NCBI GenBank assembly: GCA_029961685.1
Contig: JARWKL010000004.1
Location: forward strand, 16,986,348 to 17,050,347
Reading direction: 5' to 3'
Origin: Aristolochia californica
Taxonomy: Eukaryota; Streptophyta; Magnoliopsida; Piperales; Aristolochiaceae
Length of the DNA: 64,000 nt
The position numbers and the translations under genes are program-made. The number at the start of each line of letters is the position of its first letter. Within the stretch, counting starts at the first letter, position 1. The notes beneath the pieces are model-generated. The model did no database searches. It saw nothing but the letters and a program-made list of their open reading frames with translations, and had not been told where the DNA came from. This document shows positions 8,999-41,510 of this stretch, piece by piece.

Positions 8999-9435
8999 TG
9001 TTGGAAAGTAGGCCCAAGCCCACACGTCCAAGCAAGGCCCACATATCTAAGAGTATTTATAAGATGGCCAACGAGACCAATGAAGGATCACAAAATAGGC
9101 CCAAGCACATAAGAAGCAGAACCCACCGTGACAAGCTAGCATCCTTATTATATAAGTTAGAAGATCAAGAAGGACTCACAAAAGCATCTTTATCTTATGG
9201 CCACATCCTAGAAGAGTTATAGTTTGAGTTATGTTTGTCGTTTATCTATATTGAGTAATTTAATTATGTTAGGACTTATCTTTAAGTGTTAGAGTTTGGG
9301 TGTAATTGGGACAAAGGTAGTTTTATTGTAATTGGACTCTACTACCTCCATCTATTATAAATACAGGTTCATGTACTCTAATTATAATAAGTTAATGAAG
9401 TCAATGAAGTATTTCTCTTTTTCATAAATTCAACA
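8999..9435 (+). repeat. 5' LTR of K
   Basis: This 437-bp LTR starts TGTTGGAAAGTAGGCCCAAG and ends TAAATTCAACA. A TATA-like 'tataaatacaggttc' is at 9356-9370. It matches the J LTR (56585-57023, reverse complement) over essentially its whole length. Confidence 0.85.
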
Positions 9436-9447
9436 TGGTATCAGAGC
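9436..9447 (+). other. Primer binding site of K
   Basis: TGGTATCAGAGC abuts the LTR terminus. Confidence 0.85.
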
Positions 9448-9668
9448 AGGTTCTATGAGTTGACATGGTCAACCCACATAGATAATGAGATCCTTTTCTC
9501 TAAACCCTAAACCCTACATCTAGGTTTGTAGTTATTTTTTTTAGTCCCTACACCCATAGTTTTCTTTATCTTTTTAACTTCTATACTGAGATTTTCATAT
9601 TACAATTTATATATTGTCAAAAACATATTTGAGTATAATTTCGAAAGAAAAATTATTTTTTCCAATCG

Positions 9669-10090
9669 GAGTTATCTACAGAGAGATATTGATATTTGAA
9701 TTAGTGAAGCTCAAATTGCAATAGAGGTTTAAGCAGCAGCAGAAAGCTTCAGATTCTAAGGTATTTTATGCTCTCAAGAACTAGACTTTATATGGAGAAA
9801 TATAAATCAAAAGAAACATATGTAAGTCTATTCTTTTGCCTATTTAACCAATTTTTTATCTGAGTTATCTACAAAGAGAAATCGATATTTGAAAAATAAA
9901 AGGTCATATTGCAAAAGAGGTTCGAGCAGCAGCAAAAAGCTTCAACTTCCAATGTATTTTATGCTATCAAGAATGAGAACTTATATGTTGAATTATATAT
10001 CAAAAGAAATATCTGTAAGTCTATTTTCTTACCTATTCAACCAATTCTATATCTGACTTTTTATAAGGAGATATTGATCTTCAAAGAGTC
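9669..10090 (+). repeat. 193-bp tandem duplication inside K
   Basis: Two diverged copies start with GAGTTATCTACA at 9669 and 9862. Both run through 'gaggtttaagcagcagcag'/'gaggttcgagcagcagcaa' and a 'tcaaaagaaa-at' block. A weak third copy starts near 10055 (ttttataaggagatattgat). There is no stable reading frame through the units. Confidence 0.7.
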
Positions 10091-10691
10091 AATGGTCATG
10101 CTGGAAAAAAAAGAGAAACAGTGCTTTGTTCGGCCAGATGACAGAGACAGAAAACTATCAGATTATTTATCTTCTAATAATTACATTTTATGAAGAGAAG
10201 TTATACTTGGGTGAAATGTATTTAAGTCTAGTTTCATAAGGAGAAATTTTGATGTCAATCTAATTTATATTTAAATATGTATTTGCATTGGAAGAATTAA
10301 AGGTCATGCTAGTATTTTGTTGTATTGAAAAATCCAAATTTATGCCCCTTGTTTTGTGTCACTGTTTGAGTTGTTATATCCGGAAAATATCTCACTTCTC
10401 CGTGGTTTAAGGGCTTATTATTACATTTATGTTATTTGGGCTTTCTACTGTATCTATGATATTTGGTTCAAGCTAGGATCACTGCCATTTTATTTGAGGG
10501 GGAGAAGTAGAAGAAGTACAAGAAAGATGTATTTTATTTCACATGTTGTGGATACGTTTATGTGACAAAAATATTCATGAAAGGGGAGCACAAAAGATGA
10601 ATCTTATGCATCTAAAAAAAATATTTATATCAAATTATGATTATTTCATGGGTCCTTCTACAAGGTTTATTATTTTGGTTTGTGTTATATG
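10091..10691 (+). other. K internal region, no gene seen
   Basis: AT-rich sequence with short overlapping frames on both strands (for example 10356-10565). None has recognisable domains. I see nothing functional. Confidence 0.4.
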
Positions 10692-11196
10692 TGTTGGAAG
10701 ATGGTTGTGTTACATTATAGCTGTTGGTATTATGTCTCTTTGAATGAGACATTATTATTGAAGAAGAGGTGGCCTCAGTACCTTTTCTCATATTATAATT
10801 TATTTGACTCGCAAAAATATCACAATTGGGACACCATGAGAGTCGGTGCCTGGACTGAGACACCATGATAAATTTAACTCTAAAAAATATCATGATTGAG
10901 ATACTTTGAGAGTCGGTATCTAGATTGGGACACCATTATAAATAAACCCACTACCTCCTTGTAATGGATTTTATTACTCCTACCACTTGAGAGTCGTCAT
11001 CTTGTGTAGGGACACGATGGTGGACACTTCAGATCAATGCCGATAGACACACTACCTATTGAAGACGGAGTGTGTCCTACATCCAACATTAGGACTGGAG
11101 TATGGAGTAATGTCTTACTGGCTAGGAGTGATTTTTACTCTCACTTATATTATGCAAGCAGGACCTCATGGAAGGATGCAATAGTGTGAGGGGGAG
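10692..11196 (+). repeat. 505-bp K/J-family internal module
   Basis: The segment begins with the LTR-like head TGTTGGAAGATGG and ends in a purine tract (gtgagggggag) followed by another TGTTGGAAGATG. It contains a short internal repeat built on 'gggacaccatgagagtcgg' and related words (about 10828-10935). The same module occurs in reverse complement in J at about 57138-57622, including the order of these words, so it is a conserved part of the family. Confidence 0.65.
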
Positions 11197-11526
11197 TGTT
11201 GGAAGATGTGCCATTTTATACAAAAAGATTCTACTCATCAGTTGCAACAAGCTGGCATCCTTATTACATAACTTGAAAGATCAAGAAAGACTCAAAATGG
11301 CATCTTTATCTTATGGTCGCATCCTAGAAGAGTTCTAGTTTGAGTTATGTTTGTCTTTTTATCTATATTGAGTTATTTAATTTACTATGACATATCTTTA
11401 CATGTTAGAGTTTGGGTGTAATTAGGACAAATATAGTTTTATTGTAATTGGACTCTACTGCCTTTCTCTATTATAAATAGAGGTTCATGTACTCTGATTA
11501 TAATAAGTTAATGAAGTCAATGAGGT
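11197..11526 (+). repeat. 3' LTR region of K, interrupted
   Basis: The first ~45 bp (head plus 'ccattttatacaaaaag') match internal DNA of J, not the K 5' LTR. From about 11245 (aagctggcatccttatta) it follows the 5' LTR (9130 onwards) until it is cut near 11526 by element L. The 5' half of this LTR is therefore missing or replaced. Confidence 0.7.
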
Positions 11527-11923
11527 TTTTAAACATACAATAACATTAATATTAATTTTTTTTATTTAATTTACATTGTTTTATTTCAGTTTAGGCCACA
11601 AGGGTATTTTTGGAATATTTTAATTATAAGGGTATTTTTGGAATATTTTATTTATAGGGGTATTTTTATAATATTTTATCTTAAACCCTAACAGGGTGAA
11701 CCCTATTTAAGGGGTAAGAGTAATGAGAAAGACAAACATTGATTTTAGGTTAAATTTAGGTTATACAGGCTTGGAGCTCTCCTCAACTAGCTCTAGGGTT
11801 TTCGATTGATTTTCATCTTCCTCTCCATGTCTCCCTATAGTTCTGCCATGTTGTTCTACAATTACCCATGGCTAAACCGGAACGTCAACAATGAATCTTT
11901 GTGTCAGATCCGGGACCATAACA
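11527..11923 (+). repeat. 5' LTR of L
   Basis: About 397 bp. It contains three copies of a 'ggggtatttttggaatatttta' type phrase (11609-11670) and ends GATCCGGGACCATAACA, the same end as the Q LTRs. The head is degraded (ttttaaacatacaataac against TGTTATGCACGCAATAAC in Q), so the start is approximate. Confidence 0.75.
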
Positions 11924-11938
11924 ACTAGTATCAGAGCG
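11924..11938 (+). other. Primer binding site of L
   Basis: ACTAGTATCAGAGCG lies three bases after the LTR. It is a one-base variant of TGGTATCAGAGC, with the same small offset as in Q. Confidence 0.7.
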
Positions 11939-11946
11939 GGAACACA

Positions 11947-12380
11947 ATGAGCCCGTCTCTGTCCCTAGAAAAAGGGATTGCCTTACGTGATCAACGGGAA
12001 GAAAGACTGCACGGTATAGAGCAATTGATGAAGAATTGCATACAACAAGAGAAGTATTTTCTGCTCGCATTGCCGCCGAAAAATTCATACGACATGAAAT
12101 CCTCGAGCAGGATGTATGAGAAGGGAAAGCAGCAGAAGTTGTCTCGGACGGAGCAACAGGCCATGGCCCGAAAAAATCAAAACTTTTGTCCCGTTTACTA
12201 GCCGAAGTCCCTGCGAAAGATTTGGGGGAAACCACAAATCCAGACGGACAGAAAGGCCATGTCTCGGAAACCTTCAAAATTTCAGTGCAAGGTGAGCTAA
12301 AGTCGGGCATTCAGCAGGGTTTTCTCCCAAGAAGTCGTCGGTCGTGGACGATACTGGTACGAACCCAAATATGAATACGG
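11947..12380 (+). pseudogene. L/Q family-specific 5' frame (gag-like position)
   Basis: Overlapping frames start MSPSLSLEKGIALRDQREER and continue in another frame with LLAEVPAKDLGETTNPDGQK and VQGELKSGIQQGF. The position just after the primer site is that of gag, but no zinc knuckle is seen. Q has a 126-codon frame at the same place with the same flavour (E-FAAREKLAAEVARDVSEG, then GD-NQKLDSKFPKS). One frameshift separates the two parts in L. The function is unknown. It could be a remnant of gag N-terminal coiled coil. Confidence 0.45.
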
Positions 12381-13184
12381 GGACCTCAAAAATCTCTAAG
12401 AAGGTCCCTGGAAATCCAAAATCGAGGGGTATGCGGACACAATCTCATCGATAAAAGTTTATTTGGGTTCGACCTCCAAAAATCCATTATCATGATCGGC
12501 AGAAGGTCGGTTCTTCACCGTCGATAGGGAAAACTACCAAACGGCGAAGCCCCAACAGGCTGCGATTCGCCACCGGAGAAGCAAGAGACTCCATTGGGTC
12601 CGTCGGTGAAATTTCCACTTAAAACTTGGTCTCGGTAGCACAACGGCAAACAAACTTCCGCAAAATTTGGGGTAAACTCCTGCGATGAATTTTCCCAAAT
12701 TTTGTCTTCTCTTCGCTCAAATCCATCTATGTTTTACATAATTCCTCCCCAATGGCATCGAAATTGTTCCATGAAAATTTTGGTGTTGCGAAACAAAGGG
12801 GTTTTCTATTTAATTTTTTGGATCCCATGTATGTTATTCGGCCATGAACTTCCAATTGGAAATTTTGGCCTGGTGAGTTTCTGTTCTGAGAAGCAGAGAA
12901 ATTTTGGGTATATGAATTTCGACTTGTAATTTTTCTGGGGCTGCCGGGATTCATAGAAATAATTTTATGGGGAATGCTGAATTTTTTTTTTGAGGGGCTT
13001 TGTTTTTCTGTGGATGAGCACAGTATCTGTGCGGCTGTGAGTCTTCAAATTTTCGAATGTGGGGTTCAAATTGAAGTTGTTTTGGAGGAGACTTGCCGTT
13101 ATGTAGCTGAGGCCCTTGTCCTAACACTTCGGGTTGATGTAATAGGCAATATGGCTTGACCACTACAAATATGGGGAAGCCTAA
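12381..13184 (+). other. Unassigned internal DNA of L
   Basis: No recognisable domain. Frames at 12702-12929 and 12974-13159 are uninterrupted but lack family features. The sequence around 12700-12960 contains repeated 'aattttggg' words. It may be captured genomic DNA, given its neighbours. Confidence 0.3.
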
Positions 13185-13655
13185 TTGACCACTAATGAAG
13201 CATCTATTACTTCAATAACTAACAAACAGAAAACAGTGGACAGCCCAGATGCAGCTTCTGATCTTGTGGAGGGCAAAATGGCTGAAAGTACATCAGGAGT
13301 CCACCCAAACATTGGGATTGAAGTTCCTATTACAATGCAAAGTTTCTATTCAGGCAAGGGAGAATTAGAAGTAGATGTTGCTGGAAAATTTTGTTCTCCT
13401 ATTGAGAAGGAGTTATAAATGAAAGGAATTGAGAATTTTGGAAGAAATAGTTGCCTTATAACTAGGAACTTACTACCTGGCTTGAGGAGCTGCATGGAGT
13501 TATTCAGTTATATGTTTAATGATGCAGAAGATGCTTCCAACAGCACTTCCACATTGCTCAGCTTAACGTTGGACGACAAAGAAAAAAATGAACTGGAGTA
13601 TATGGAACAATTGGAAAAATCTCCATTCCTTGAGAGGCTCACAAAGAAAGACTGA
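13185..13655 (+). pseudogene. Captured E(z)/SWN-like Polycomb methyltransferase fragment
   Basis: The frame reads SPIEKEL, a stop at 13416-13418, then KGIENFGRNSCLITRNLLPG followed by LRSCMELFSYM. In plant E(z) proteins (SWINGER/CURLY LEAF, the H3K27 methyltransferases of PRC2) the corresponding segment, just before the CXC and SET domains, has the pattern EK-LY-KG-EIFGRNSCLIARNLL-GLKTC-EV--YM. The fit includes the invariant FGRNSCLI core. The stop (TAA) sits where that pattern has Y, one base away from a Tyr codon. There is no CXC and no SET domain. The continuation (LTLDDKEKNELEYMEQLEKS) is not clearly E(z). It is a dead, intron-free fragment inside element L. Confidence 0.7.
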
Positions 13656-13780
13656 GGTAATTTTCTTCACAGCCCCAGTATTTGAATTTGGAAAATTTGG
13701 AGGCAATTCAGCAGAAGTGTCCTTCCATACTGTCACTGTTGGCACTACTTGTGCCTCTGTCCCTGAAGGGAAGACATTAG
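13656..13780 (+). other. Unidentified coding-like joint between the two captured genes
   Basis: In the frame 13588-13818 the sequence reads FTAPVFEFGKFGGNSAEVSF and then VTVGTTCASVPEGKTLDETI. It looks like real, low-divergence coding DNA (no stops, balanced codons), but I cannot name the family. It overlaps the end of the E(z)-like frame and the start of the PRMT3-like frame in other phases, so it may be a third captured exon. Confidence 0.35.
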
Positions 13781-14668
13781 ATGAAACCATTCATGTCGGA
13801 GGATGCATTTTTGCATAGTTTTGGTGGGGATGAAGATGACCGAGATGAATGTACCCCAACAGTTGACAGAGAAGAATTCCTGAGGGAGGTGGACTACGTC
13901 AAAGATTTTGCTAAAATTTGCTTGGTGGATGAGAATGTTCTTGATGCTGTTTTATATGAACTTGATTATGTTCATGGACCCTTTAAGAAGGTACATGAAG
14001 AAGTTCATGAAGTTCCAATTGCTGCTTACAAGGCCCAAAATGTTATTGCTGGAAATGGCATTCCGGGGGGTGAGCTTGGAAGATTTCCTGCATGGGAAAG
14101 GAAGGATAATAGTTTGAAGGGTTCTTTTGCGAATGTTGCTGCCAGAGTAATCAAGAATGTAGACGAGAATTATTTTGGGACGTACAGTTCTTTTGGAAGT
14201 CACAGAGAGATGATCAGCGAGATGGTGAGGACAGAATCTTATAGGGCAGCTATTCTGAATAATCCTTCTCTCATGAGCCATGCAACAGTTCTGGATGTTG
14301 GTTGTGGGACTGGAATACTGATTTTATTTGCTGCAAAAGCAGGGACCATTCTCACTGATATGGCAACTATGTTTTCTGCTGGAGTTGGGAGAGGTGGACC
14401 TAGCATTCCATTATGGGAAAATGTCTATGGATTTGACATGTCTATCTTTGGGATGGAAGTTCTGGAAGATGCGACCCTGCTTCCTATTGTTGATGTAGTC
14501 GACATTAGTGATATTGTAACAGGCACATCAGTTCTCAAGACCGTTGATCTGGTGACAATGGAGTCTAGTTATGTAGACTTAACCTCTAGCTTTGAGTTGG
14601 AGCCGACGAGGCTATCTCATGTTGCTGCTGCTATTGCAGTGCAGATAAGGGCACCCCAGCAGCAATGA
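13781..14668 (+). pseudogene. Captured PRMT3-like arginine methyltransferase fragment
   Basis: A 295-codon open frame. Residues 2-15 (KPFMSEDAFLHSFG) resemble the segment after the C2H2 finger of plant PRMT3. Residues 116-148 (FANVAARVIKNVDENYFGTY, then SSFGSHREMISE) are the PRMT N-terminal helix with the YF-Y signature. Residues 170-178 (VLDVGCGTG) are SAM-binding motif I. The frame then jumps at about 188-193 to the beta-barrel part (IPLWENVYGFDMS 209-221, PIVDVVD 235-241, DLVTM 256-260, FELEP 271-275). The missing middle contains the double-E catalytic loop, so it cannot be an active methyltransferase. PRMT3 methylates ribosomal protein S2-type substrates. The exons are fused without introns, consistent with capture of spliced RNA. 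It ends AAIAVQIRAPQQQ, not a PRMT C-terminus. Whether it is translated is unknown. Confidence 0.82.
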
Positions 14669-15650
14669 CAACCTGAAAAATATAATGCAATACCATATTG
14701 CGTACAGAGACAGAACCATGAATGGGACAAAGCTTCATGCACACCTGACTTGGACAGAGGCCTGCAAATTGCTACTGTGGTGGCACTGTAGCAATGGGGT
14801 CAGCATAAAAAAATAACACCGGGTTGAAGTGATGCAGATGAGCAAAACCTGGAATATATAGACCAAAATGGAAATGACTCACAGGGTGCATCTATAGCTG
14901 ATGTGATTCAGGGACATGCTGCTGTGATTAATGCTGTCCAGTTCGGTGAACACCAATGGGAAACAACACACCTAATCGGTCCATATTAAGGCAAGCGGTA
15001 TGGCAGTGTTTATGGGCAGAGAGGAAGTTCCACTCCATGGAGTTCTTTACACCCAGCAAAGGCTCTCTTAACCTAGTGGAGTTATGTGGCAGTCCAGCAT
15101 ACTCAGCAGACACTGCTGCTAGCCAGCCCAACCGAGGTGCTTCTTGTGGATGCAGAGGGTTATTGGCATGCAATCAAGGCACTAACCCAGAGTGTTGGAC
15201 ACAGGTTGTATACTTCCGGTGATGCTGAATCTACTGCTTCTACTAAACCTGTTATTAGTGATGGTTTCCGGCCTCTGAGTGTTTCAAGGTGCAGCAAATG
15301 GAGGGGGTTCGTGCTGCTGATTATTCTCCATCCCAGGGGGCTGGTCTTGATGTTGTTGCTGCCAGGCTGGCAAAGTATAGACAGTGCAACCTAGCCAACG
15401 GGGGGCCACCGTGAGGGGCTATTTCACACCAGTCCAGGACTGAGGGAGGGCAGAGATGCTGCTTGGGGAGATGTAGTGACATTCAACACGCATCCTTATA
15501 GTCGAGCATAAAAAAAAAATGGTAGAGGGAGTGCTCCAGTTTTGGGCGTCCAGAGGGCGAACATAGCGATCGCGGATGCTACTTGGGCCCAGGAGGAGAC
15601 GTTGGCATACAGACCCTTTTTTTTCTCAAGCTCGTTCTTCTGAAGGGGAG
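14669..15650 (+). other. Unassigned internal DNA of L
   Basis: Stop-ridden, gene-like base composition with scraps such as DQNGNDSQGASIADVIQGHA (about 14860-14920) and TLLLASPTEVLLVDAEGYWH (15107-15166). I do not recognise a family. It ends with an A-run (15510-15519) and the purine tract (tgaaggggag, 15641-15650) next to the 3' LTR. It may be a further captured gene or an old internal domain. Confidence 0.3.
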
Positions 15651-15970
15651 TAATTTTATGCACGAAATAACATTAATATTTAATTTTTTATTTAATTTAA
15701 ATTATTTTATTTCAGTTTAGGCCACAGGGGTATTTTTGGAATATTTTAATTATAGGGGTATTTTTGTAATATTTTATCTTAAACCCTAAAGGGTGAACCC
15801 TATTTAAGGGGTAAGAGTAATGAGAAAGGCAAACATTTATTTTAGTAAAAATTTAGGTTAAACAGGCTTGGAGCTCTCCTCAACGTGCTCTAGGGTTTTC
15901 GATTGATTTTCATCTTCCTCTCCATGTCTCCCTACAATTCTGCCATATTGTTCTACAATTCCCCATGGCC
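15651..15970 (+). repeat. 3' LTR of L, truncated
   Basis: Homologous to 11527-11923 from 'ttatgcacg' through 'aattccccatggcc'. It lacks the last ~45-50 bp (the GATCCGGGACC end). The loss coincides with the border of K at 15977. Confidence 0.75.
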
Positions 15971-15997
15971 GAATCAAATCGACACCTATGCACCAAT

Positions 15998-16008
15998 TTG
16001 AGGGGGAG
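15998..16008 (+). other. Polypurine tract of copia M
   Basis: The 'ttgagggggag' tract ends where the 3' LTR starts (TGTTGAAATG at 16009). It primes plus-strand synthesis in the family. Confidence 0.8.
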
Positions 16009-16199
16009 TGTTGAAATGAGATGTAAATTATAGGTTGTAATTTGTTACCATAATTGTAGGAAAAAATTTGTTTCCTTGATTTGTTCCTAATTCTAGGATC
16101 TAATTTGGACCTAAATTAGGTTGTAATTGTATAATAAAAAGCCTCCGTATAGGAGAAGAATACATCGAAAAATTATTATTTGAAACCTCTATTTTGATA
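16009..16199 (+). repeat. 3' LTR of copia M
   Basis: 191 bp. It starts TGTTGAAATGAG and ends TTTTGATA (CA mutated to TA), followed by the target duplication GATTA. Confidence 0.86.
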
Positions 16200-16204
16200 G
16201 ATTA

Positions 16205-17085
16205 TTTCTGAGCGACGCTATGGAAGAAAAGGGAGGAAGAAGATTATTCAGAGAGAACAAGAAACCACGACAACAGAGAGGAAAGGTGGACAGAAGAAGG
16301 AGAGAAAAATTATTCTGAGTAGAGAGGGAAAACATTGCAGAAGGAGAAAATTATTCTGGGCAGAGAGACAAGAACTTACAGTGAGAAGAAGTTTGCATTA
16401 CTGGTTGGTGGAGTAGTCTGGTTGTGTGACCAAGCTCGATCACCTTGTCCATCGAATTGTCTGCCTCTAATCTTCAATCCATCGTTAACCTACTGAAGAG
16501 AAAAATTATTCTGAGTAGTTTTGAAGATGCTGAGGTAGCGAAGCAAATGAAGAGGAAAATTATAATCGGATTCATTTTCTTCTATTCAGATTCATTTTAT
16601 TCTTTTCCCCTCATAAAAAAAAATATAGTGAAGTTGTTGATGTTGAATTTAATTTTTAGCATGAACTAAATTTTTTTTATTCTATGAAAATTCTATAATC
16701 TAGTTTTGAAGTATGCTTGCCTTTCTATGCTAATTGTAATTCTCTTCTATGTTTGTCTGATTTATTCTGGTATTATTGCTCCTAATTGACTGGCCATTAA
16801 TTAGATGATTTTGATCTTGTGATTTTCTATCGAAAGTGGGAATTATAGGATAGATCTTGGATATTTCGGCATAGGTAAATATAGAGATCGAAAGACTTGT
16901 ATGAACCTATGTAGTATTAAAATCATTGGTCTTAATACTTTCTTGCTTTATTAATTTGCATACTCTTATGTAAAATGATGAACAATATTTGTCAAAAGTA
17001 AGTTACCAATCCTTGAGGACGATACTTTTCTTATCACTTTACTATAAAACTAAGATATTGTGCACTTGCAATTTTGCACCGATCA
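16205..17085 (+). repeat. Tat-like LTR, right portion
   Basis: This continues the LTR that began at 2011 after the GATTA duplication. Near its end it has the phrases 'ccttgaggacgatactttt' (about 17012) and 'gtgcacttgcaattttgca' (about 17059), which are typical of the 3' end of Tat-type LTRs. It probably ends in CA at 17085. There is no coding potential. The exact right border is uncertain because the matching target duplication lies outside the window. Confidence 0.55.
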
Positions 17086-17584
17086 CTCGGATCGATGCCA
17101 CCCCTAGCTACTAGCATTACCTTCGGCTCTTCCAATGATAATATCTCTTTTTAGAACGAGTAGATTTAGAAATGATTTATTGGGATAGAAAGTAGAGTCA
17201 CATATATTTATTTTGAGATATATTTCTCAACATAAAATTTCAGCTATTTTGGTACAAACTGTTCAGAAAGTTGACGCTTTCTAGTGCTACTTGAAACTTT
17301 TCATTGGCTTGATCTTTGCTACTTCAAATGTCAAATTCCCTTTCTAGGAAAAAATAGATTTCCACAATTCTTTTTGAGTTAGAAACTAGAATAAAATATA
17401 TTTCCAATGCTACATAATTTTCTATATAAAACACATGGTATGAGAGTGAAAAAAACATAGAAAAGTAGGAATTGAGAAAGAAGATTAAAGACAAACATCA
17501 GAAACTCTTTTTTTTCTTATTCTTCTTCTTCCTCCTCCGTTTTTTCTCCATCTTCTTATCCTTGTCCACTTTAGATATTTACCT
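17086..17584. other. Unassigned, with a possible copia leader
   Basis: No reading frame of note. 'catggtatgagagtg' at 17444-17458 looks like a mutated plus-strand primer site. The pyrimidine-rich block 17495-17560 looks like a minus-strand copia leader next to the LTR at 17597. Neither is certain. Confidence 0.35.
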
Positions 17585-17960
17585 TCTCTGATACCATGTT
17601 GATTTCTAGGGCCAACACATAAACACAAGAGATCTCAGGGGAAGGAGAAAAAAGAGGAACTCTTGTTCTTGGAAGAGAGGAGAGAAGAAACCAAGGGAGA
17701 GAAAAAAGAGGAAAAGAGAGAGAGGTTTAAGGACAAATTTGAGCCAAGAAGAAGAAGCTTCTATGCTCTACCACTTGCCTTGAGACTGTATTTATAGTTG
17801 TGGGAAAGTGTTTACAATGATTACATTGCTATTAGGGCTACATGATTCAAAAGGAGAAAGACATAAGAGGACATACACCAGCTTGCATAAATACAATTTT
17901 ATGTAGAAGTTCTCCTTATTTACTACCCATTCCACCCTTACATACGTGGGTATCTTTTAA
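17585..17960 (-). repeat. Solo or truncated copia LTR with primer site
   Basis: On the minus strand, 17597 is the end of an LTR (reading ...GAAATCAACA), and TGGTATCAGAGA (17585-17596) directly follows it as primer site. Inside is a TATA-like 'tatttatagt' (17789-17800 region) and a purine-rich stretch at 17637-17730. No partner LTR or pol was found and the outer border is a guess. Confidence 0.5.
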
Positions 17961-18834
17961 TCATTATATTATTAATTTTTGTTCAATTTTTTATGAACTT
18001 TTTTTAGTCCATATTATTTGTTAATCAATTTCCACGCCTTTTAATCCTATCCATAAGCAAGACAACCTTTTTGTTCTATATAAATTACTCTTAGTAGTCT
18101 TTCCAGAAGGTATTTTAACATCTATATGATTGATTTCAAGTTCATATGCGGTTAGCATTCAACTTATAGTTATCCTAATAAGTGGAGAGCAAGTATAAAA
18201 GTAATTCGTTCCATTATTTTGACACATAAGTTTGTAGTTTCTAGGAATTCATCTTGATCATGTTTCTTTTGGTAAGATTGATTTAGAGCCTAGAGGTAAA
18301 ACTATCAAAGTCCATGGACTATATAAAAGGAATAATTTTATTTCACTTTGATGTCTCCCTTCATTGTATTACCATGGTCTTTGCTTCGACATCAATCAAG
18401 AATTATCCTCAACTAAAAATACCTAGAAATCATCTTTTAGGTTTCTTTCTATCTAAAGGGGGATTATCGTGTCTGAAATTGCTTTAGATTTGGGCTTTAG
18501 TTGCAGATTAATTGTGATATATTCTATATTGTGTTTGGAGTTATGAAAATATTTTCTTGGAGCCTCATTTTTAGTAATTTTCGAATTCAATTTCATTCTC
18601 CAAGAACTTAAATGAATTTTTAATAGAAAATAAAAAAATAAAAAATTAAACATTTTAAAAAAGGAAGGCAATTCTCCTTCCTTGTCCTCAATCTAGAGGA
18701 GGATCCCCATTGCCTTCACTCTATTGGCAGCACAAGGAGGGTATCAACCTCCCCTTTCCTCATTTGGAGTAGGGAGGCAACCCTCCTCCTTAGGGCAAAA
18801 ACGAAAAAGGGGTAAGGGGGCTTGACCCTCCTCT
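17961..18834. other. Unassigned AT-rich DNA
   Basis: Nothing recognisable. Short frames on both strands lack domains. From 18660 to 18830 the sequence becomes a G/C-rich 'ctccttcc'/'gagggggg' type stretch leading to the TRIM. Confidence 0.3.
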
Positions 18835-19332
18835 TGTTAAGCACCTGCCAAAAACTACCCAAGTGACCGGCCTGGTAGGTAGCGAAAAGCCAAGTACTTA
18901 ACCCTAGGATCATAACAATACTCGCACCATTATGAGCCGATGTCCACGATGGCCCACTCTAGCGACGACCTACTCTAGCGACACCGCTATGTCTCCCCCT
19001 CCGCTAGATTTGCTCACATCGGGATTCGAACTCATGACGACGGTATAACTATGATACCAAATGTTAATCACCTAGCAAATACTACCCCAGAGACCGGCCT
19101 GGTAGGTAGTAGAACGCCAAGTACTTAACCCCAGGATCATAACAATACTCCCATCATACACTCTAGAGACACCGCTAGGTCACCCCCTCCGCTAGGTTTG
19201 GTCACGCCAGGATTCAAACTTGCAATGACGGTATAGCTTTGATACCAAATGTTAAGCACCTAGCCAATACTATCCAAGAGACAGGCCTGTTAGGTAGCAG
19301 AAAGCCAAGTACTTAACCCAAGGTTCATCACA
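18835..19332 (-). mobile_element. Tandem TRIM: three 83-bp LTRs, two internal spacers
   Basis: Three LTR copies, each exactly 83 bp, lie at 18835-18917, 19062-19144 and 19250-19332. On the plus strand each starts TGTTAAKCACCT (TGTTAATCACCT in the middle copy) and ends in ATMATAACA-like bases. Read on the minus strand each LTR is TGTTATGATC...CTTAACA (the third is mutated at its end). After two of them comes TTTGGTATCAWAG, a tRNA-Met primer site (plus 19050-19061 and 19238-19249). A few bases later is a tRNA B-box-like GAGTTCGAATCCC (19020-19034) or its diverged partner (19209-19222). Flanks CCTCT (18830-18834) and CCTCC (19333-19337) agree in four of five bases. LTR-spacer-LTR-spacer-LTR arrays are known for TRIMs and arise by recombination between LTRs. 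There is no coding capacity. Confidence 0.8.
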
Positions 19333-20317
19333 CCTCCCCCCATTCCCCCACTCTCCACCCCCCCATTTTTTATCATTGATTGAAAGGAAAATGAACGAGG
19401 GGAAGGACACCTTGCCCTTTCCATATAGTTCCTTCTCAAAGGAGGCAGATGACCCTCATGACAAAACATGGAGCAACACATCGTATTGGGCAAGGAAGAG
19501 GATGACAACGTGACCTGAAAACCTTGTGTTCATGTTTTTGGTTTCACCCCAAGGGTAAAAATTGGGATAGAAAAAATCCATTGGGTTTTGGGTTAGATAC
19601 GAGTTTTCCCAAACCCGACCTGCAAGGACAAGACATGGGTATAAAACTTGTCGGAATGGGTTGGATTTATAGGGATGGGGCAGAGATGGGTTGGGTTTAA
19701 GTTGGGTTTATGGGGATGAGGTGAGGATGGGTTGTGGGGAAAGTGATCGGGTCAAATTTGGGTTTGACATTCATTGTTTTTATAGTTTTTTTTATGTTCC
19801 GGTTTCCGGACACCCGACCCGTGCCCACCACCAAGGTGAAAACACTCTCTTCCAAGAGGTAGGATAACTAAATTATATCAAAAAGATAATTTAAATTAAA
19901 ATTTTTATTTAGTTAGTTTAATCGAATCAAAATTATTTTATTTTACTTAAAAAATTAATAATTATTTATAAATAAAAATTTGAAAATAATAATTTTCTGA
20001 TAATTTTTAAAATGGTGATTTTTATTCAAAATATAATACAAAAAATTTAATGCAACAATTATTTTGTTACTTATTTTATTTACATAATATTCATGATAAT
20101 TATTTTATACATTCAATTAATTATTTTAACTCCATAACTCCAGCAGTTAAACCAACTCTAGGATTCTATATTCTAAAAATATTTACTCTAGAATCTTATA
20201 AACCAACAACATAATTCCAATAGAAAAATAACACTCACATAAACCCCCATTCCTCTTTCCCTTCTAAGTGAAAGTTTTAGTACTACTTCAGAAATATCAT
20301 TTTGAAGTCTAGAAGAT
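19333..20317. other. Unassigned DNA with AT-rich core
   Basis: 19333-19510 is G/C-rich. 19550-19760 carries irregular repeats of 'gatgggttgggttt' and 'gggtttgggt' words. 19860-20130 is extremely A/T-rich. No gene or element ends are seen. Confidence 0.35.
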
Positions 20318-20399
20318 TGTTAAGCACCTAGCCAATACTACCCAAAAGACCGACCTGGTAGGTAGCGAAAAGCCAAACACTTAACCCAATATCATAACA
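20318..20399 (-). repeat. Mini-LTR (82 bp) at the 3' end of chromovirus remnant F
   Basis: The sequence starts TGTTAAGCACCTAGCC and ends ATCATAACA on the plus strand. It aligns along its whole length with the 83-bp LTRs at 18835-19332 and 48471-48553. On the minus strand it directly follows the polypurine-like end of a chromovirus pol (CTTGAGGGCAAGCTC, then AAGGGGTG, at about 20405-20440). It is therefore placed exactly where a 3' LTR should be. Left flank AAGAT. Confidence 0.65.
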
Positions 20400-20403
20400 T
20401 CGC

Positions 20404-20640
20404 ACACCCCTTGGAAAAAGAGCTTGCCCTCAAGCTCATATGCTAGGTTGACCTGTTGTGCCCTCTGGAGGCAATCAGTAATATTCTGTAGCACCTGGTC
20501 TCGGTCAATGAGTGCCTGATCAATTGCTTCCACTCGTGTGGAGCCCAGAGTATATGATAGAAGCCGAGGAGGATCTTTGCCATATAGAACTCAAAATGGA
20601 GTAGACTGGAAGGTTGTGTGGAAGGAAGTGTGTGGTATAT
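20404..20640 (-). pseudogene. F integrase C-terminal scrap
   Basis: This matches, at DNA level, 24430-24560 of element D (the 'gtggagcccagagta' and 'agaagccgaggaggatct' blocks), which lies upstream of the chromodomain. At about 20600 it jumps to sequence equivalent to 25200 in D, so roughly 650 bp of integrase were deleted. The left end reaches the purine tract. Confidence 0.65.
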
Positions 20641-30493: not shown

Positions 30494-30884
30494 AGTAGAA
30501 TTTAGAATCTCATGAAAGGAACTTTAGATCAACAAGAAAGAAGAAGAAGAAGAAGAGAGAAGGAGAAGAGAAGAAGAAGAACGTGGAAGAAGAGAGTTTG
30601 GATTAAAGGAGAAGAGGGTTGCGTCAAAAATAAAAATGAGGGTTGGACGAATTTGTGGAAAGAGAGGAGAGTGCTTCAATGCCCTACCTATTAGCCAATG
30701 CCTTTATTTATAGTTTTACAATACCCTTAGGACTACAACTTGATAAAACAAAAGACATAAAAGGAACACATATTTATACTTCTATGCCATCTTTATGGAA
30801 AGTACCATATTTTACACATATGCCACTCCTTTGACGTTTGGGCTTCTTGTCTTGAGCTCGTGGGCTTGAGCCCATCTTCCAACA
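30494..30884 (-). repeat. 3' LTR of copia C
   Basis: 391 bp. Plus-strand start (T)GTAGAATTTAGGATCTC with the first base changed, end CCATCTTCCAACA. A GAAGAA-type run lies at 30536-30580. The tract CTCCCCCTCAAGCTGG follows (polypurine on the minus strand). Confidence 0.83.
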
Positions 30885-31156
30885 CTCCCCCTCAAGCTGG
30901 AGGAGAAAAGACATCAATCATAAATACCCAGCTTGCCACATATAAACGATAGGATTTTAGATGTAACGGGTTTAGTGAGAATATCAGCTACTTGCTCTTG
31001 AGATGACACATGTTTGAGAGAGATTATTCATGTTTGAAACTTCTCCCGTATAAAATGACAATCCACCTCAATATGTTTAGTTCTTTCATGAAAAACTGGA
31101 TTTGAAGTGAGATGAATGGCTGCTTGATTATCACAAAGCAAATTCATGGACCCCTT

Positions 31157-32330
31157 TTAATAAAAACCTAGTTCTGTAAGAAGGGTCCGGATCCATAAAA
31201 GTTCACTAACGGTATGGGCCATAGCTCTGTATTCTGCTTCGGCACTAGATCTTGCAACCACATTTTGCTTCTTACTTTTTCCATGTAACCAAGTTTCCCC
31301 CAACCAAAGTACAATATCCTGATGTAGATTTTCTATCATCAGGAGATCCAGCCCAATCTGCATCTGAGAAGCCTTCTATGTTGAAGTGCCCATGTTTTTT
31401 ATATAACAATCCTCTTCCTGGAGCTCCTTTTAGATAACGTAATATTCTCTCTAAAGCCTGCCAGTGGGTAATTTGTGGTTTGTACATGAATTGACTCACC
31501 ACACTTACATCATATGTTATGTCTGGCCTAGTTACCGTGAGATAAATCAGTTTTCCCATGAGTCTTTGATATTTGCCAATATCAATATCTTCTTCATTTG
31601 TGGCACATAATTTTACATTTGTATCCATAGGTGTGTCAACTGGTCTACAACCCTTCATTCTTGTTTCTTCAAGGAGATCCAAGACATATTTCCTTCGAGA
31701 AAATATTATCCCATGTTTGGATTGAAAAACTTCTATACCCAAAAAATATTTAAACATACCAAGGTCTTTAGTCTTGAATTCTTGACATATCATCTGCTTC
31801 ACCTCTTGTATGCTCAAAGCATCATCATCGGTTAAGATAATATCATCCACGTATACGGCCAATAATATTTTCCCTTTGATCGTATCTTTATAATATACGG
31901 AATGAAAACAAAACCATAGGAGTGTTTGACTAATTTATCACACCAAGCCCGAGGGGACTTCTTAAGCCCATATAAAGACTTTTTTAACCGACATACTGAC
32001 TCCCCCTCAATCACATAACCAGGTGGTTGAACCATATAAATTTTCTCACTGATATCCCCATTTAAAAAAACATTTTTAACATCCAACTGATAGACGGACC
32101 AAGAGGAGTTAGCTGCAATAGATAAGATGATGCGTACCGAATTCAATTTTGCATCAAGGGATGGATCCACTTCAAGATTGAACGGCACAAGCGGACAAGG
32201 AGAAATAGAAGGACAAGTCCATCCTGGAGGAGCATCATGGGAGGAGTAGAAGGGAGTGTCATCAAAGAAAGTCACATCCCTAGAGATAAACATCCTCCGA
32301 AGGGTAGGATTGTAACAGACATAACCTTTC
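31157..32330 (-). pseudogene. Copia C RT and RNase H
   Basis: AVYVDDIILTDDDALSIQEV has the catalytic YVDD at 31843-31854 intact. KYFLGIEVFQSKHGI, YVLDLLEETRMKGCRPVDTP and GFSDADWAGSPDDRKSTSGY follow, then SRSSAEAEYRAMAHTVSELL. Upstream on this strand the text jumps at about 32160 from NLEVDPSLDA to KLNSVRIILS, so about 100 residues of the RT fingers are missing. A frameshift lies at 31850. Confidence 0.87.
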
Positions 32331-32361
32331 TGGGTGCGAGAGTATCCCAAAAAAATATACT

Positions 32362-33189
32362 TCATAGACCGAGGATCAAGTTTATTTTTAATGGAAATGT
32401 AACATGAACAAAACACGTACATCCAAACACTTTCAAAGGAAGAGAAAAAGGATCTTCACCATTAAATAACATAGAGTAAGGAGTTTTATGATGAAGGACT
32501 GATGAAGGTAACCTATTAATGAGAAAGCATGTTGTAAGTATAGTATGAGGCCAATAGAAATAAGGTACCTTCATGGAGTAGAGGAGGCCCCGATCAACTT
32601 CAAGAAGATGACGATTCTTCCTTTCAGGAACACCATTTTGTTGAGGAGTATAGGCACATGATGTTTGATGAATAAGCACATTACTATCACAAAATGATTT
32701 GAAGTCATGAGACATGTATTCCTTAGCATTATCAGATCTAAGGGTTTGAATTTTCTTCCCAAATTGTGTCAAGACCATAGCATGAAATTTTTTAAACAAA
32801 GGAAGAATTTCGGAACGCTCTTTAAATAGATATAACCAAGTCACTTGAGTAAAATCATCAACAAAAATGACAAAATATTTAACTTGGGAAATATTTGACA
32901 CACATAAAGGGCCCCATACATCAGAATGTATTAGCTCAAATGGAACAGTACTTGTAGTTGTAAGACGAGGAGAATATGTACTCCTGACATGTTTACTTAA
33001 TTGAAAAACCTCACAACTGATATTAGAAAGTCCTTTTAAAGATGGAACCAAAGAACGAAGTGAAGGGGTAGGCGGATGACCAAGTCGGTTGTGCCAAAGT
33101 TGGGCCTCATATGTAGTGGATGATAATGCAGCTAATGGTGGAAGAGTGAAGTAGTACAAACCCCCCTTTTCATGGCCGACACTAATCAC
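32362..33189 (-). pseudogene. Copia C pre-integrase and integrase
   Basis: A 275-codon open frame: GAG-pre-integrase (QLWHNRLGHPPTPSLRSL, CEVFQLSKHVRS with the first zinc Cys pair altered to CEVF), then D in HSDVWGPL, D in RSDNAKEYMS, E in NGVPERKNRH. The catalytic triad is intact. It is the longest undamaged integrase in the window. Confidence 0.88.
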
Positions 33190-33207
33190 CCGCTTCGTAG
33201 TGAGATC

Positions 33208-33963
33208 CTAAAAGACACAAGAAGACGGTGAGAAGGTGATAGAGCAATTTAATTGTTTGTTCAATTGGCTAACCGAGAGAAAATTTAAAGGGAATTGAGG
33301 AACAAACAAAACATCTTGAAGGGGAATAGATGAAGTAAGAGAGGAGGAACCTTTGCCAAGGACCTTGGTTTGGGTACCATCAGAAATAGTAATGAATTTA
33401 TGAGGATAACAAGGAGATAAGGACTGCAACAAGTGTTTGTTACCTGATAGATGTTTAGAGGCCCCGGAGTCGATGATCCAAGAGGAAGAGGAAGAAGAGG
33501 AAGAAAGCATACCTAAGGCAATAGTAGTGGCAGCAGTAGATGATGAGGGAATAGATGATTCCATGAAGGACTTCATTTTATGAAATGAAGCATAGTCCTC
33601 AGCCGTAAGAGTCACATTTTTGGATGATGATTCAGCCTTATCTTCATTTTTCTCAACGTTAACTGAGACTAGGTTAGCTGTGGCCCAATCAGGCTTGCCA
33701 TGAAGTTTCCAGCATGATGCCACAAGGTGGTTCTGACGGCCACAATAAGTGCAAAGTTGAGGCTCAGTACAGAAAGAATTCTGACCCATTCTACCACCTC
33801 TATTTTCAGCCCCTCTCATTGTTCGATCCCCTCTCATATTTCTACCCCATCCTCGGGATGAGGAAGATGTTCCCCCATTTCCCAGAGAACATCGCTGATG
33901 GAGTATCAATAGGACAAGGAGGGGATGGATCCGGTATCCTAAGTAATATAGCACTAATATCAT
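33208..33963 (-). pseudogene. Copia C nucleocapsid and protease
   Basis: A zinc knuckle CTYCGRQNHLVASC and the protease motif SWIIDSGASKHLSGN occur in one 251-codon frame, followed by GKGSSSLTSSIPLQDVLFVP and FPLNFLSVSQLN. Both catalytic motifs look intact. An RGG-like basic stretch (GRNMRGDRTMRGAENRGGR) precedes the knuckle. Confidence 0.86.
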
Positions 33964-34518
33964 CGAAGGATGGAAGAGCAGAAGAACTTAGAAGTTGAGT
34001 TTTGGCCAGCTCAAGGTATGGTCTAATATTCGATAAGCAAATGGCTGCTGCCAAAGCTTCTCTTTGTCGTTCTTGAACGACAATATCAGTGGAACATGGC
34101 TGAACTAGTTTCCATTCTTGAAGAAGACCGTGAAACCGTGCCAAAACTTCATGAATATTATCTCCATGTTTCGTATGCAACAAGTTTTTTAAGACATCAT
34201 ATATTTTTTTGTAATGAAGCAGTGCTTGAGTAAAGCTTGGCACAAGTGTCCCATATGTTCTTGGTGGTTTCCAAGTGGACCACATTGTTGGCCACCTACT
34301 CTTCCATGCTATTAATGAGCCAACTTATCACCATGTTATCATCCTTAACCCACTTGTGGTAGGACGTATCTTCTTCATCAATCGGAGGAGGAAAGTTAAC
34401 AACGTGGCTCAACCCTTCGAACTGATTTTGACCAGCTCATGTAATTGGAGAGACCTCTAAGTGGAATTGTAGTAATACGGAGTATATCACTCTTATTACT
34501 ATTGTATCCAATCTCCAT
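33842..34518 (-). pseudogene. Copia C gag
   Basis: Start ATG at 34516-34518 (MEIGYNSNKSDILRITTIPL). A frameshift follows at about 34420 where ~20 bp present in copia A are deleted. Then VHLETTKNIW-like text and LHTKHGDNIHEVLARFHGLL, QERQREALAAAICLSNIRPY to the RGG region. The family is the UBN2/RVT_2-linked copia gag. Confidence 0.78.
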
Positions 34519-35406: not shown

Positions 35407-35757
35407 GCTCTGATACCATGTAGAATTTAGGATCTCATGAAAGGAACTTTAGATCAACACGAAAGAAGAAGAAGAAGAAGAGAGAAGGAGAAGGGAAGAA
35501 GAAGAACGTGGAAGAAGAGAGTTTGGATTAAGGGAGAAGAGGGTTGCGTCAAAAAGAAAAATGAGGGATGGATGAATTTGTGGAAAGAGAGGAGAGTGCT
35601 TCAATGCCTTACCTCTTAACCAATGCTTTTATTTATAGTTTTACAATACCCTTAGGGCTACAACTTGATAAAATAAAAGACATAAAAGGAACACATTTAC
35701 ACTTCTATGCCATCTTTATGGAAAGTACCATATTTTACACATATGCCACTCCTTTGA
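35407..35757 (-). repeat. Primer site and 5' LTR of copia C, truncated
   Basis: The primer site (GCTCTGATACCA on the plus strand, 35407-35418) abuts TGTAGAATTTAGG at 35419. The LTR is cut at 35757 within 'ccactcctttgac', losing its first ~53 bp together with part of the chromovirus C protease. Confidence 0.82.
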
Positions 35758-39587: not shown

Positions 39588-39977
39588 TGTTACAGTCCCG
39601 GATCTGGCACAAGGATTCTTTGGGTAGATCTGCAATCTGCCATGGATTACCGTACGGATATTAAGGATTAAAGGAAGACATGGAAAACGAAAACGAAAGA
39701 TCAAGCCTAAGGGAAGCTTGATAACCCTAGAGCTCGTTGAGCAGAACTCTAAGCCTCTCTACACTGGATTTAACCTAATTCTTAATACTTCAATGCTTGT
39801 TTTTCTCATTACTCTTACCCCTTAAATAGGGTTCACCCGGTTAGGGTTTACGATAAAATATTACAAAAATACCCCTATAAATAAAATATTCCAAAAATAC
39901 CCCTATGGCCTAAAACTGAAATAAATAAAGTAAATAAAAGAAAACACTAAAATAATAATGTTATTGCGTGCATAACA
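39588..39977 (-). repeat. 3' LTR of Q
   Basis: 390 bp. Plus-strand start TGTTACAGTCCCGGATC, end GCGTGCATAACA. Contains repeated 'aaaatattacaaaaatacccc' type phrases, as in the L LTRs. Confidence 0.92.
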
Positions 39978-40617
39978 TTATACCCCCCCTGGAAGACGAG
40001 TTTGCCCTCAAGCTCGGAAGCAGTGTCTGCGCAAGTGTCAACAGCGGTATCGAATTGCCTCAAGCCAACGAAAGATTTTTTTTTGTTTCCCGAGTTGACC
40101 CGGTCCGAGTTGGCCTGGGTTGACTCGGTATTGGACCCCCGGTCCTGTGCATGACTCAGTTTCCTGCGCTCATCAAATTTTCCTAACTTAGGAAAAATTG
40201 AATCGGGAGTCATCTTCCTCCTTCGGCGGAAATTTCGCTGACGGCTCTTCTAGGGAAATCGGAAATCTTCCTCCTCCTCATGTCGATCCCGAAATGAGCG
40301 GCCATCGGACATTGCGGGAACCTCGGCTTCTCCCCTCACGGCACCGACTAAGGCGGGCGATGGTCGTATGCCGTTCTCACGGCACCGCACAGTGCGGAAA
40401 TTTCGCCGACAGAGTCTCCTGCTGCTCCGACGGTGAATCGCAGCTCGTTGGCCCCCCCGGAACAGAGACCCCTTGTGGAATTGTCGCCTATTTCACCGAC
40501 AGGATCTCCTGCTTCTCCAGTGACGAAGAGAAGTCCTCTGAGGAGTCGGCGCTTGGAATTTTTCCAAGACAGAGTGCTCTCCGAAACACATCCCGATGGG
40601 AAGAAGCACCAGAAATA
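39978..40617 (-). other. Q internal 3' region, G/C-rich
   Basis: Contains repeated 'ttgccgac'/'tcgccgac' and 'ctgcttctc' words and overlapping frames on both strands (for example plus 40198-40752). No domain recognised. The polypurine tract lies at its left end. Confidence 0.5.
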
Positions 40618-40998
40618 TTACCTTCTCCTGTTCGGCAAGGTGTTTTGCTTGCCGTGAGCCTTTTTGGTGTGAATTCGGATTTGAGGTCTCACCCAATTTG
40701 TCAATGCCGACGAGGTGTTAGCAGAAAACCCCTCCGATTTTGGATTTCTTGAGTCCTGGCCGTCAGATTTTGGAAATTTGGAGTCCAATTTCTGATTTGT
40801 GTCCCCAATTTCGGATTTTGCCGCCGCTGGAGAGACAGGGGGCGCTCTGATTTCTTGCGTCTCCTGCCCTTCTGAGACATCTCGAGCGACTTCTGCAGCG
40901 AGTTTCTCTCTCGCAGCAAACTCTCCCCCTACGTTTTGTGCCGGTGTTGTGGTCCTTCCCCTCGTTAAACTTGTTACGTTGTTCGTCCGCCCATTCAA
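40618..40998 (-). CDS. Q family-specific frame of unknown function
   Basis: A 126-codon open frame just after the primer site, where gag would start: MNGRTNNVTSLTRGRTTTPA, then EFAAREKLAAEVARDVSEGQ and KSEIGDTNQKLDSKFPKSDG. It is hydrophilic and rich in charged residues, with no zinc knuckle, protease or membrane segment. L has a broken counterpart (11947-12380). An alternative frame (40701-40919) overlaps it. It may be a gag remnant under weak constraint or a frame by chance in G/C-rich DNA. Confidence 0.4.
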   Translation of the reverse strand: MNGRTNNVTSLTRGRTTTPAQNVGGEFAAREKLAAEVARDVSEGQETQEIRAPPVSPAAAKSEIGDTNQKLDSKFPKSDGQDSRNPKSEGFSANTSSALTNWVRPQIRIHTKKAHGKQNTLPNRRR

Positions 40999-41120
40999 CC
41001 TCTCTATATCGAGATTAAATTTAGAGAGCCTCTCTAGGGCAGTATCAAATTTTCTTTAAAGCAATTCAAAGTATTCATTGGTGTTTCTCTCTGTCGGGTT
41101 ACCCTGCTTTGATACCAAGT

Positions 41121-41510
41121 TGTTACGGTCCCGGATCTGGCACAAGGATTCTTTGGGTAGATCTGCAATCTGCCACGGATTACCGTACGGATAGTAAGGA
41201 TTGAAGGAAGACATGGAAAACGAAAACGAAAGATCAAGCCTAAGGGAAACTTGATAACCCTAGAGCTCGTTGAGGAGAACTCTAAGCCTCTCTACGCTGG
41301 ATTTAACCTAATTCTTAATACTTCAATGCTTGTTTTTCTCATTACTCTTACCCCTTAAATAGAGTTCACCCGGTTAGGGTTTAAGATAAAATATTACAAA
41401 AGTACCCCTATAAATAAAATATTCCAAAAATACCCCTGTGGCCTAAAACTGAAATAAATAAAGTAAATAAAAGAAAACACAAAAATAATAATGTTATTGC
41501 GTCCATAACA
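41121..41510 (-). repeat. 5' LTR of Q
   Basis: 390 bp. Plus-strand start TGTTACGGTCCCGGATC, end GCGTCCATAACA, followed by GTTTG. Confidence 0.92.

What the first reader, a model, noticed from the sequence alone, without database searches (positions are those of the whole stretch)
11527..15970. LTR element L carries fragments of two methyltransferase genes, E(z)/SWN-like and PRMT3-like
Between two homologous LTRs and after a primer site lie, in the same orientation as the element, an E(z)-type segment (FGRNSCLI core, 13419-13500) and a 295-codon PRMT3-type frame (SAM motif I, YF-Y signature, barrel region). Neither shows introns, which suggests spliced RNA was copied. Pack-type capture is known for plant LTR elements, Helitrons and MULEs. 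Two fragments from chromatin/protein methylation genes in one element, with an open 295-codon frame left, is unusual.
Basis: partly seen in the sequence, partly recalled or inferred. Interest (0 to 1): 0.8.

Follow-up and report, generated by a model that had tools for sequence, protein, structure and literature searches.

The report
Retrotransposon that collects plant gene pieces
A small, worn-out plant retrotransposon carries reverse-copied scraps of two methyltransferase genes, probable relatives of it seem to carry scraps of other genes too, and the captured pieces here look dead rather than useful.

Summary
Between two direct LTRs (about 11529-11923 and 15654-15969), with a primer site and purine tract, lie a gap-free E(z)/SWN piece (13185-13610, 85% identical to Aristolochia californica EZ3) and a PRMT3 piece (13781-14605, about 83% to A. 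californica PRMT3). The 295-codon frame is no working enzyme: 93 donor residues after SAM motif I are missing, and its changes fall at random with respect to PRMT3 conservation (47 changes, z 1.2; functional pair 94 changes, z 9.8). Four truncated A. californica 'PRMT3' proteins share the deletion and group with it, so the piece was probably captured once and amplified; one of them ends in this element's own 3' internal sequence. Relatives carry other host pieces: NAP1-like (weak), Hsp110 and PPR. L is best read as a decayed copy of a non-autonomous LTR retrotransposon family with several captured host mRNA pieces, probably picked up by template switching. The pairing of two methylation genes looks incidental. 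It is a Bs1-like case: a new member of a known kind. Donor DNA and further whole copies could not be read, so exon borders and mechanism are inferred.

The parts
11529..11923 (+). 5' LTR of element L; first ~10 bases degenerate or eroded at the junction with the preceding element's LTR
   Evidence: Alignment with L 3' LTR (K2P 0.077, 23 differences in 314 sites) and with the LTRs of relative M
11926..11937 (+). primer-binding site, tRNA-iMet type, directly after the 5' LTR
   Evidence: Sequence TAGTATCAGAGC; relative M has TGGTATCAAAGC at the same place; iMet assignment recalled
11924..12600 (+). 5' internal backbone, weakly shared with M
   Evidence: Short blastn matches at 12411-12430, 12528-12588 and 12552-12591 (the last two overlap), 72-95%, E 4e-6 to 0.007
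13185..13610 (+). captured E(z)/SWN fragment, one in-frame stop at 13416-13418
   Evidence: 142 codons, 85% to P0121 aa 237-378 and 73% to P0122; short islands from 13136 may mean it starts a little earlier (weak)
13741..13782 (+). non-PRMT3 piece (GTTCASVPEGKTLD) joined to PRMT3; the same join occurs in A. californica P0001; origin unknown
   Evidence: 12 of 14 residues identical to P0001 aa 1-14; no Pfam or PDB match for frames covering it
13781..14605 (+). captured PRMT3 fragment, 275 codons, with a 93-residue internal deletion at about 14342-14347
14606..15145 (+). segment C, shared with chimeric A. californica protein P0124; origin unknown
   Evidence: 69% identity to P0124 aa 273-472 over 14564-15145, broken by stops in L
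15524..15653 (+). 3' internal backbone ending in the purine tract (15643-15653)
   Evidence: 15524-15616 is 81% identical to the C-terminus of P0003; tract next to the 3' LTR as in M
15654..15969 (+). 3' LTR of L, last ~45 bases missing where the tract and LTR of another repeat begin
39588..41510 (-). element M, a relative with complete ends: 390-bp LTRs TGTTAT...TAACA, CAAAC on both sides, no recognisable gene

Best explanation
L is a decayed copy of a non-autonomous LTR retrotransposon, probably of Ty3 type, in an Aristolochia-like genome. Its coding region has been replaced by reverse-copied pieces of host mRNAs: E(z)/SWN, then a short unknown piece, then PRMT3, then segment C of unknown origin. 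Shown: LTR pair, primer site, purine tract, the two host pieces in sense, a PRMT3 deletion shared with four A. californica proteins that group with L, the element's 3' end in one of them, and neutral change in L. Inferred: element RNA was packaged by proteins of an autonomous partner; spliced host mRNAs were co-packaged; reverse transcriptase switched templates between element and host RNA; the PRMT3 piece was captured once, lost 93 codons, and was amplified with later swaps of neighbouring cargo. L makes no working methyltransferase.
For: Structure. Cargo identity. Five A. californica rows are among the 120 listed hits; the 4 truncated ones all have the deletion, the full-length P0002 does not, nor does P0005 of Tasmannia. 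Element copies separate from P0002 with ultrafast bootstrap 93, and L with P0001 with 98 (13 sequences). P0003 carries the L 3' internal end. P0003 and P0004 join PRMT3 to RGN..VLG at the same place. P0124 shares segment C and holds Hsp110 and PPR pieces. NAP1-like start in P0003, with similar starts in P0004 and P0009. Neutrality. No inverted repeats of 30 bases or more in 9000-19000.
Against: Target-site duplication cannot be tested because both outer ends of L are eroded. No donor DNA, so intron loss is indirect. LTRs were not seen around the A. californica proteins, which are gene predictions. The PRMT3 deletion lies between two Gly-Ala dipeptides of P0002, so it could be an exon skip or an ordinary deletion. 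The Ty3 assignment rests on a short peptide.
Confidence: 0.77

Rival explanations
1. The cargo frame is a working chimeric gene or regulator (as suggested for Bs1), kept by selection.
For: A 275-codon PRMT3 frame without stop or frameshift; four relatives annotated as genes in A. californica. P0001 and P0003 lean slightly towards changing at variable sites (z 1.9 and 2.1).
Against: L changes are random with respect to conservation: 28 L-only changes, z 0.10, 7 at near-invariant sites against 7.3 expected; the functional gene pair shows 1 against 24.6. The region after SAM motif I is lost. The E(z) part has a stop.
Confidence: 0.06
2. L matters as a source of RNA or small RNA that silences or titrates the donor PRMT3 and EZ3 genes.
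For: Sense cargo of over 800 and 400 bases; uniquely mapping small RNAs at LTR-captured genes are reported for rice and sorghum (PMC3726574, passages read).
Against: No expression data here; protein-level identity to donors is only about 82-85%, which limits perfect pairing.
Confidence: 0.1
3. The arrangement arose at the DNA level: pseudogene pieces gathered by nested insertion or non-homologous repair between two LTRs, with no RNA step for the cargo.
For: The neighbourhood is dense with repeated elements and L's outer ends are eroded. Intron positions of PRMT genes are said to differ considerably between maize and other plants (PMC9655960, passage), so intron content of the donors is not certain.
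Against: Same PRMT3 deletion in four other predicted proteins and the element's 3' end in one; pieces continuous across 426 and 564 bases, whereas the three G. arboretum E(z) genes listed have 17 exons each and all apple PRMT genes have introns (passages).
Confidence: 0.12
4. The PRMT3 deletion is not a copying error but a captured exon-skipped transcript of PRMT3 (compatible with the best explanation).
For: Deletion is in frame and the same in L and four A. californica proteins; exon skipping is suggested for some pepper retroduplicates (PMC5664825, passage).
Against: The ends lie in two Gly-Ala dipeptides, which also fits slippage between short repeats; donor exon borders unknown.
Confidence: 0.4

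Closest known systems
Bs1 of maize (LTR retrotransposon with pieces of three host genes)
   Same: LTR element with several unrelated host gene pieces inside (review PMC13317346, section 4 read)
   Different: Different host lineage and genes; Bs1 is reported as transcribed and translated, L shows no sign of selection
NLR retroduplication inside mostly non-autonomous LTR retrotransposons of pepper (PMC5664825, passages read)
   Same: Spliced host mRNA captured in LTR elements and amplified; two or three genes inside one element were also met there
   Different: There the focus is one gene family; here pieces of several unrelated genes appear in L and its relatives
LTR-captured genes of rice and sorghum (672 and 1,343; PMC3726574, passages read)
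   Same: Same general phenomenon; many rice cases are taken for pseudogenes
   Different: The passages read count annotated genes inside LTRs; I saw none on joints shared between copies
TRIM elements with transduced cellular sequence (Arabidopsis P450 piece; PMC13317346, section 4)
   Same: Short, gene-poor LTR elements; relative M (1.9 kb) resembles this class in size
   Different: M and L have LTRs of about 390 bp and L a 3.7-kb interior with several pieces
Pack-MULEs and gene-carrying Helitrons
   Same: Carry several gene pieces
   Different: No terminal inverted repeats found; LTRs, primer site and purine tract instead. Helitron ends were not searched for

Membership tests
LTR retrotransposon | two direct LTRs more alike to each other than to relatives' LTRs | tested here: met
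   L5/L3 K2P 0.077 against 0.23-0.27 to M LTRs
LTR retrotransposon | primer-binding site after 5' LTR and purine tract before 3' LTR | tested here: met
   Same positions as in relative M; primer assignment recalled, one mismatch in L
LTR retrotransposon | target-site duplication | tested here: inconclusive
   Both outer ends of L eroded; relative M has CAAAC on both sides
Ty3-type LTR retrotransposon | gag-pol of Ty3 order | tested here: inconclusive
   No Pfam retroelement domain in the parts of L and M scanned; only the peptide ELEGKL(V/F)FQG of M recurs at 20408-20443 beside Ty3-type domains
gene-capturing (Bs1-like) LTR element | pieces of more than one host gene between the LTRs | tested here: met
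   E(z)/SWN and PRMT3
gene-capturing (Bs1-like) LTR element | cargo derives from spliced RNA | tested here: inconclusive
   No gaps against donor proteins except the PRMT3 deletion; donor exon borders not available
gene-capturing (Bs1-like) LTR element | cargo moved in more than one copy | tested here: inconclusive
   Shared deletion in four and shared 3' end in one A. californica protein; LTRs of those copies not seen
active PRMT3 methyltransferase | complete SAM domain with post-I and double-E motifs | tested here: not met
   P0002 residues 319-411 missing; motif names recalled
active PRMT3 methyltransferase | protein-level constraint | tested here: not met
Pack-MULE | terminal inverted repeats | tested here: not met
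   0 inverted pairs of at least 30 bases (seed 11) in 9000-19000; shorter or diverged ones would be missed
Helitron | Helitron termini around the cargo | not tested
   No call

The most novel reading that the evidence does not exclude
The family is a serial gene collector: its copies have taken up pieces of at least five unrelated host mRNAs (PRMT3, E(z)/SWN, a NAP1-like gene, Hsp110, PPR) and reshuffle them by recombination between packaged RNAs. L shares its left cargo joint with P0001 and its segment C with P0124, while P0001 continues PRMT3 where L has segment C.
Probability: 0.4. Interest if true: 0.6.

Novelty: new member of a known kind. Interest (0 to 1): 0.42.

Why it matters
It adds what looks like a family of LTR elements with several kinds of cargo in a magnoliid lineage; the cases I read about come from grasses, Arabidopsis and Solanaceae. 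It also shows a practical trap: four A. californica proteins annotated as PRMT3 appear to be transposon-borne fragments. If sibling copies carry different cargo with shared joints, the family would allow the order of capture and shuffling steps to be read directly, which bears on how reverse transcription builds chimeric genes.

Tried and rejected
The genome of origin could not be searched: the genome search was unreachable in all six tries, so other L copies and donor DNA were not read. Reading the open frame as constrained was tested and rejected. A third known gene in 14606-15520 was sought: Pfam gave nothing credible in three frames, PDB nothing for 14606-15145 in one frame, and the protein search, limited to proteins of about 256-814 residues, gave only P0124, also A. 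californica. The piece before PRMT3 stayed unidentified. A Pfam scan of the neighbouring short element (8999-11540, plus-strand frames) and of M's interior found no domain. An NCBIfam scan of P0124, P0009, P0003 and P0001 gave only weak matches far below the curated cut-offs. The PPR piece had no Pfam match at E up to 10; it rests on PDB chains (E 0.0008 for a chain in which it matches once). The NAP1 identity rests on Pfam E 0.0069 for P0003 (below the curated cut-off) and on 11 of 12 PDB rows being NAP1 with best E 0.061; P0004 and P0009 themselves showed no NAP match at E up to 1, the cut-out piece of P0009 gave E 0.26, and both are linked only by 81% and 69% identity to the P0003 piece; the fit to plant NAP1 is recalled. 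A possible LEPKI match of P0124 to PRMT3 next to segment C was seen, but another PRMT3 alignment of the same stretch is also possible, so it is not used as proof. PMC9655960 (passages) gave no exon count for PRMT3. Papers: PMC2899935 (Bs1) is not held. A search for Aristolochia californica with retrotransposon found 0 papers in the library, and a six-term search for different cargo in copies of one LTR family found 0; this covers only that library and those words. Searches were used as listings, apart from the papers cited.
Full report
What is there. Two direct repeats flank the region: 11539-11872 and 15666-15969, 92-94% alike in the two aligned blocks. A relative, M, lies on the minus strand at 39588-41510. 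It has 390-bp LTRs (TGTTAT...TAACA), a primer site, a purine tract and CAAAC on both sides. By comparison with M, L's LTRs run about 11529-11923 and 15654-15969. L's two LTRs differ by K2P 0.077 (23 of 314 sites) and M's by 0.034 (13 of 390 sites); L to M is 0.23-0.27. At rates from 3e-9 to 1.3e-8 per site per year, L inserted roughly 3 to 13 million years ago (rates assumed). L's left end meets the cut end of a preceding element's LTR, and its right end gives way to the purine tract and LTR of another repeat (16009-16197 matches 2630-2823; copia-like by its look, not tested). A target duplication therefore cannot be read for L.

Backbone. Just after the 5' LTR lies TAGTATCAGAGC, a tRNA-iMet-type primer site (recalled), at the same place as in M. 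The 5' interior up to about 12600 shares three short matches with M, two of them overlapping. The 3' interior ends in a purine tract as M's does. Neither L nor M shows a retroelement protein domain in the parts scanned, so both would need a helper. M's peptide ELEGKLVFQGG recurs as ELEGKLFFQG at 20408-20443, beside Ty3-type gag, protease, reverse transcriptase and RNase H domains on that strand. A Ty3 origin is therefore likely but not proven.

E(z) piece. 13185-13610 matches residues 237-378 of EZ3 of Aristolochia californica (P0121) over 142 codons without a gap, 85%, and its paralogue P0122 at 73%. One in-frame TAA lies at 13416-13418. Three proteins matched at E up to 0.001, among 384 candidates; the third, from Arctium, at 41% over half the piece.

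PRMT3 piece. 13781-14605 matches A. californica PRMT3 P0002 (621 aa, with the zinc finger, methyltransferase and C-terminal domains) at residues 131-318 and 412-500, 83% and 82%. Residues 319-411 are missing. They contain the stretch after SAM motif I and the double-E loop (motif names recalled), and L also ends before the C-terminal THW. The frame cannot encode a working enzyme (inference).

Other copies. The protein search listed 120 of 2670 hits. Five of the 120 are A. californica; the four truncated ones, P0001, P0003, P0004 and P0009, have the same deletion. On 275 columns and 13 sequences L and these four separate from P0002 and the outgroups (ultrafast bootstrap 93), and L groups with P0001 (98). 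The branch to P0002 is 0.011, those to the copies 0.05-0.13. L and P0001 also share the odd joint GTxCASxPEGKTLD before PRMT3. P0003 ends in RGNAPVLGFQRAAIAIADATWTQVETSAYRP (then four residues more), 81% identical to L 15524-15616, which is the element's own 3' interior. P0004 joins PRMT3 to a similar start (RGNPLVLGI) at the same place.

Other cargo. L 14564-15145 matches P0124, an 'uncharacterized' A. californica protein, at 69%; it was the only hit at E up to 10 among 1484 candidates of limited length. P0124 also has an Hsp70/Hsp110 C-terminal piece (Pfam HSP70 1.8e-5; yeast Sse1 1.2e-11) and a PPR-like piece (0.0008 against a PPR chain in which it matches once; no Pfam match). P0003, P0004 and P0009 begin with a common piece fused to PRMT3 that is NAP1-like in P0003 (Pfam NAP 0.0069, below cut-off; 11 of 12 PDB rows NAP1, best E 0.061). 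P0009 and P0124 share a further short piece. L and the relatives thus hold pieces of four host genes, and of a fifth if the NAP1-like piece is accepted. For the relatives this rests on predicted proteins; their DNA and LTRs were not seen.

Selection. Site entropy was taken from 108 homologues of at least 560 residues (109 with P0002; 4 element copies and 7 shorter rows of the 120 were left out). The 47 differences of L from P0002 fall at sites of mean entropy 1.58, random expectation 1.41 (z 1.17; 11 at near-invariant sites against 12.3 expected). The 28 L-only changes give z 0.10, with 7 against 7.3; the 14 shared with P0001 z 0.75. The functional pair P0002 and P0005 gives z 9.8 over 94 changes, with 1 against 24.6. 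Two narrower L-only sets, picked by P0002 matching the majority or near outgroups, lean to conserved sites (16 changes, z -2.2; 20 changes, z -1.1), which that choice itself favours. P0001 and P0003 lean slightly towards variable sites (z 1.9 and 2.1), weak evidence of some constraint in part of their history. Expected new stops are 0.86 on the L-only branch and 1.45 for all L changes, so no stop has probability 0.42 or 0.23; frameshifts were not modelled (all).

Introns. No gap interrupts the aligned stretches apart from the PRMT3 deletion. The three G. arboretum E(z) genes in the passage seen have 17 exons each (PMC9890721, passages), and all apple PRMT genes have 6 to 22 introns (PMC11165092, passages). 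A 426-base and a 564-base stretch without an intron therefore fit spliced RNA. Donor gene models were not available.

Mechanism. The best account is a non-autonomous LTR element whose RNA was copied in particles of a helper together with spliced host mRNAs. Reverse transcriptase switched templates into and out of those mRNAs. The PRMT3 piece probably entered once; later copies changed neighbours. The left joint of L is shared with P0001 and segment C with P0124, while P0001 continues PRMT3 through the place where L turns into segment C. This mosaic suggests recombination between copies, but only protein predictions support it.

Known context. Bs1 of maize holds pieces of three host genes, and template switching is described for plant LTR elements (review PMC13317346, section 4 read). 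LTR capture is frequent: 672 genes in rice and 1,343 in sorghum (PMC3726574, passages). NLRs of pepper were multiplied inside mostly non-autonomous LTR elements, and two or three genes in one LTR element were met (PMC5664825, passages). L fits this kind.

Host. The best cargo matches are A. californica in all three protein searches, so the window is from Aristolochia or a close relative (inference). The genome itself could not be searched.

Noticed in passing
window 39588-41510 (-): Element M: a 1.9-kb relative of L with complete 390-bp LTRs, CAAAC on both sides and no recognisable gene, inserted in a larger repeat copy whose other copy lies at 30495-35758.
   Followed up: partly
window 8999-11530 and 56585-57625: Two copies of another short LTR element; no Pfam domain in the copy scanned (plus-strand frames). 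Its first LTR is followed by TGGTATCAGAGC and a tract GAGGGGGAGTG precedes the second.
   Followed up: partly
window 58109-64000: Long tandem array with a period of roughly 670 bases, running to the window's end.
   Followed up: no
window 18834-20399 and 48466-48999: A short repeat family; part of its translation (VKHLANTTQKTGLLGAEDI) recurs with two changes inside the A. californica protein P0003, so that gene model contains a second repeat.
   Followed up: partly
P0001, P0003, P0004, P0009, P0124 (A. californica): Annotated proteins that appear to be transposon-borne chimeras; probable annotation artefacts.
   Followed up: partly
window 13645-13788 and 14606-15523: Two L segments of unknown origin; parts of both recur in A. 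californica proteins.
   Followed up: partly
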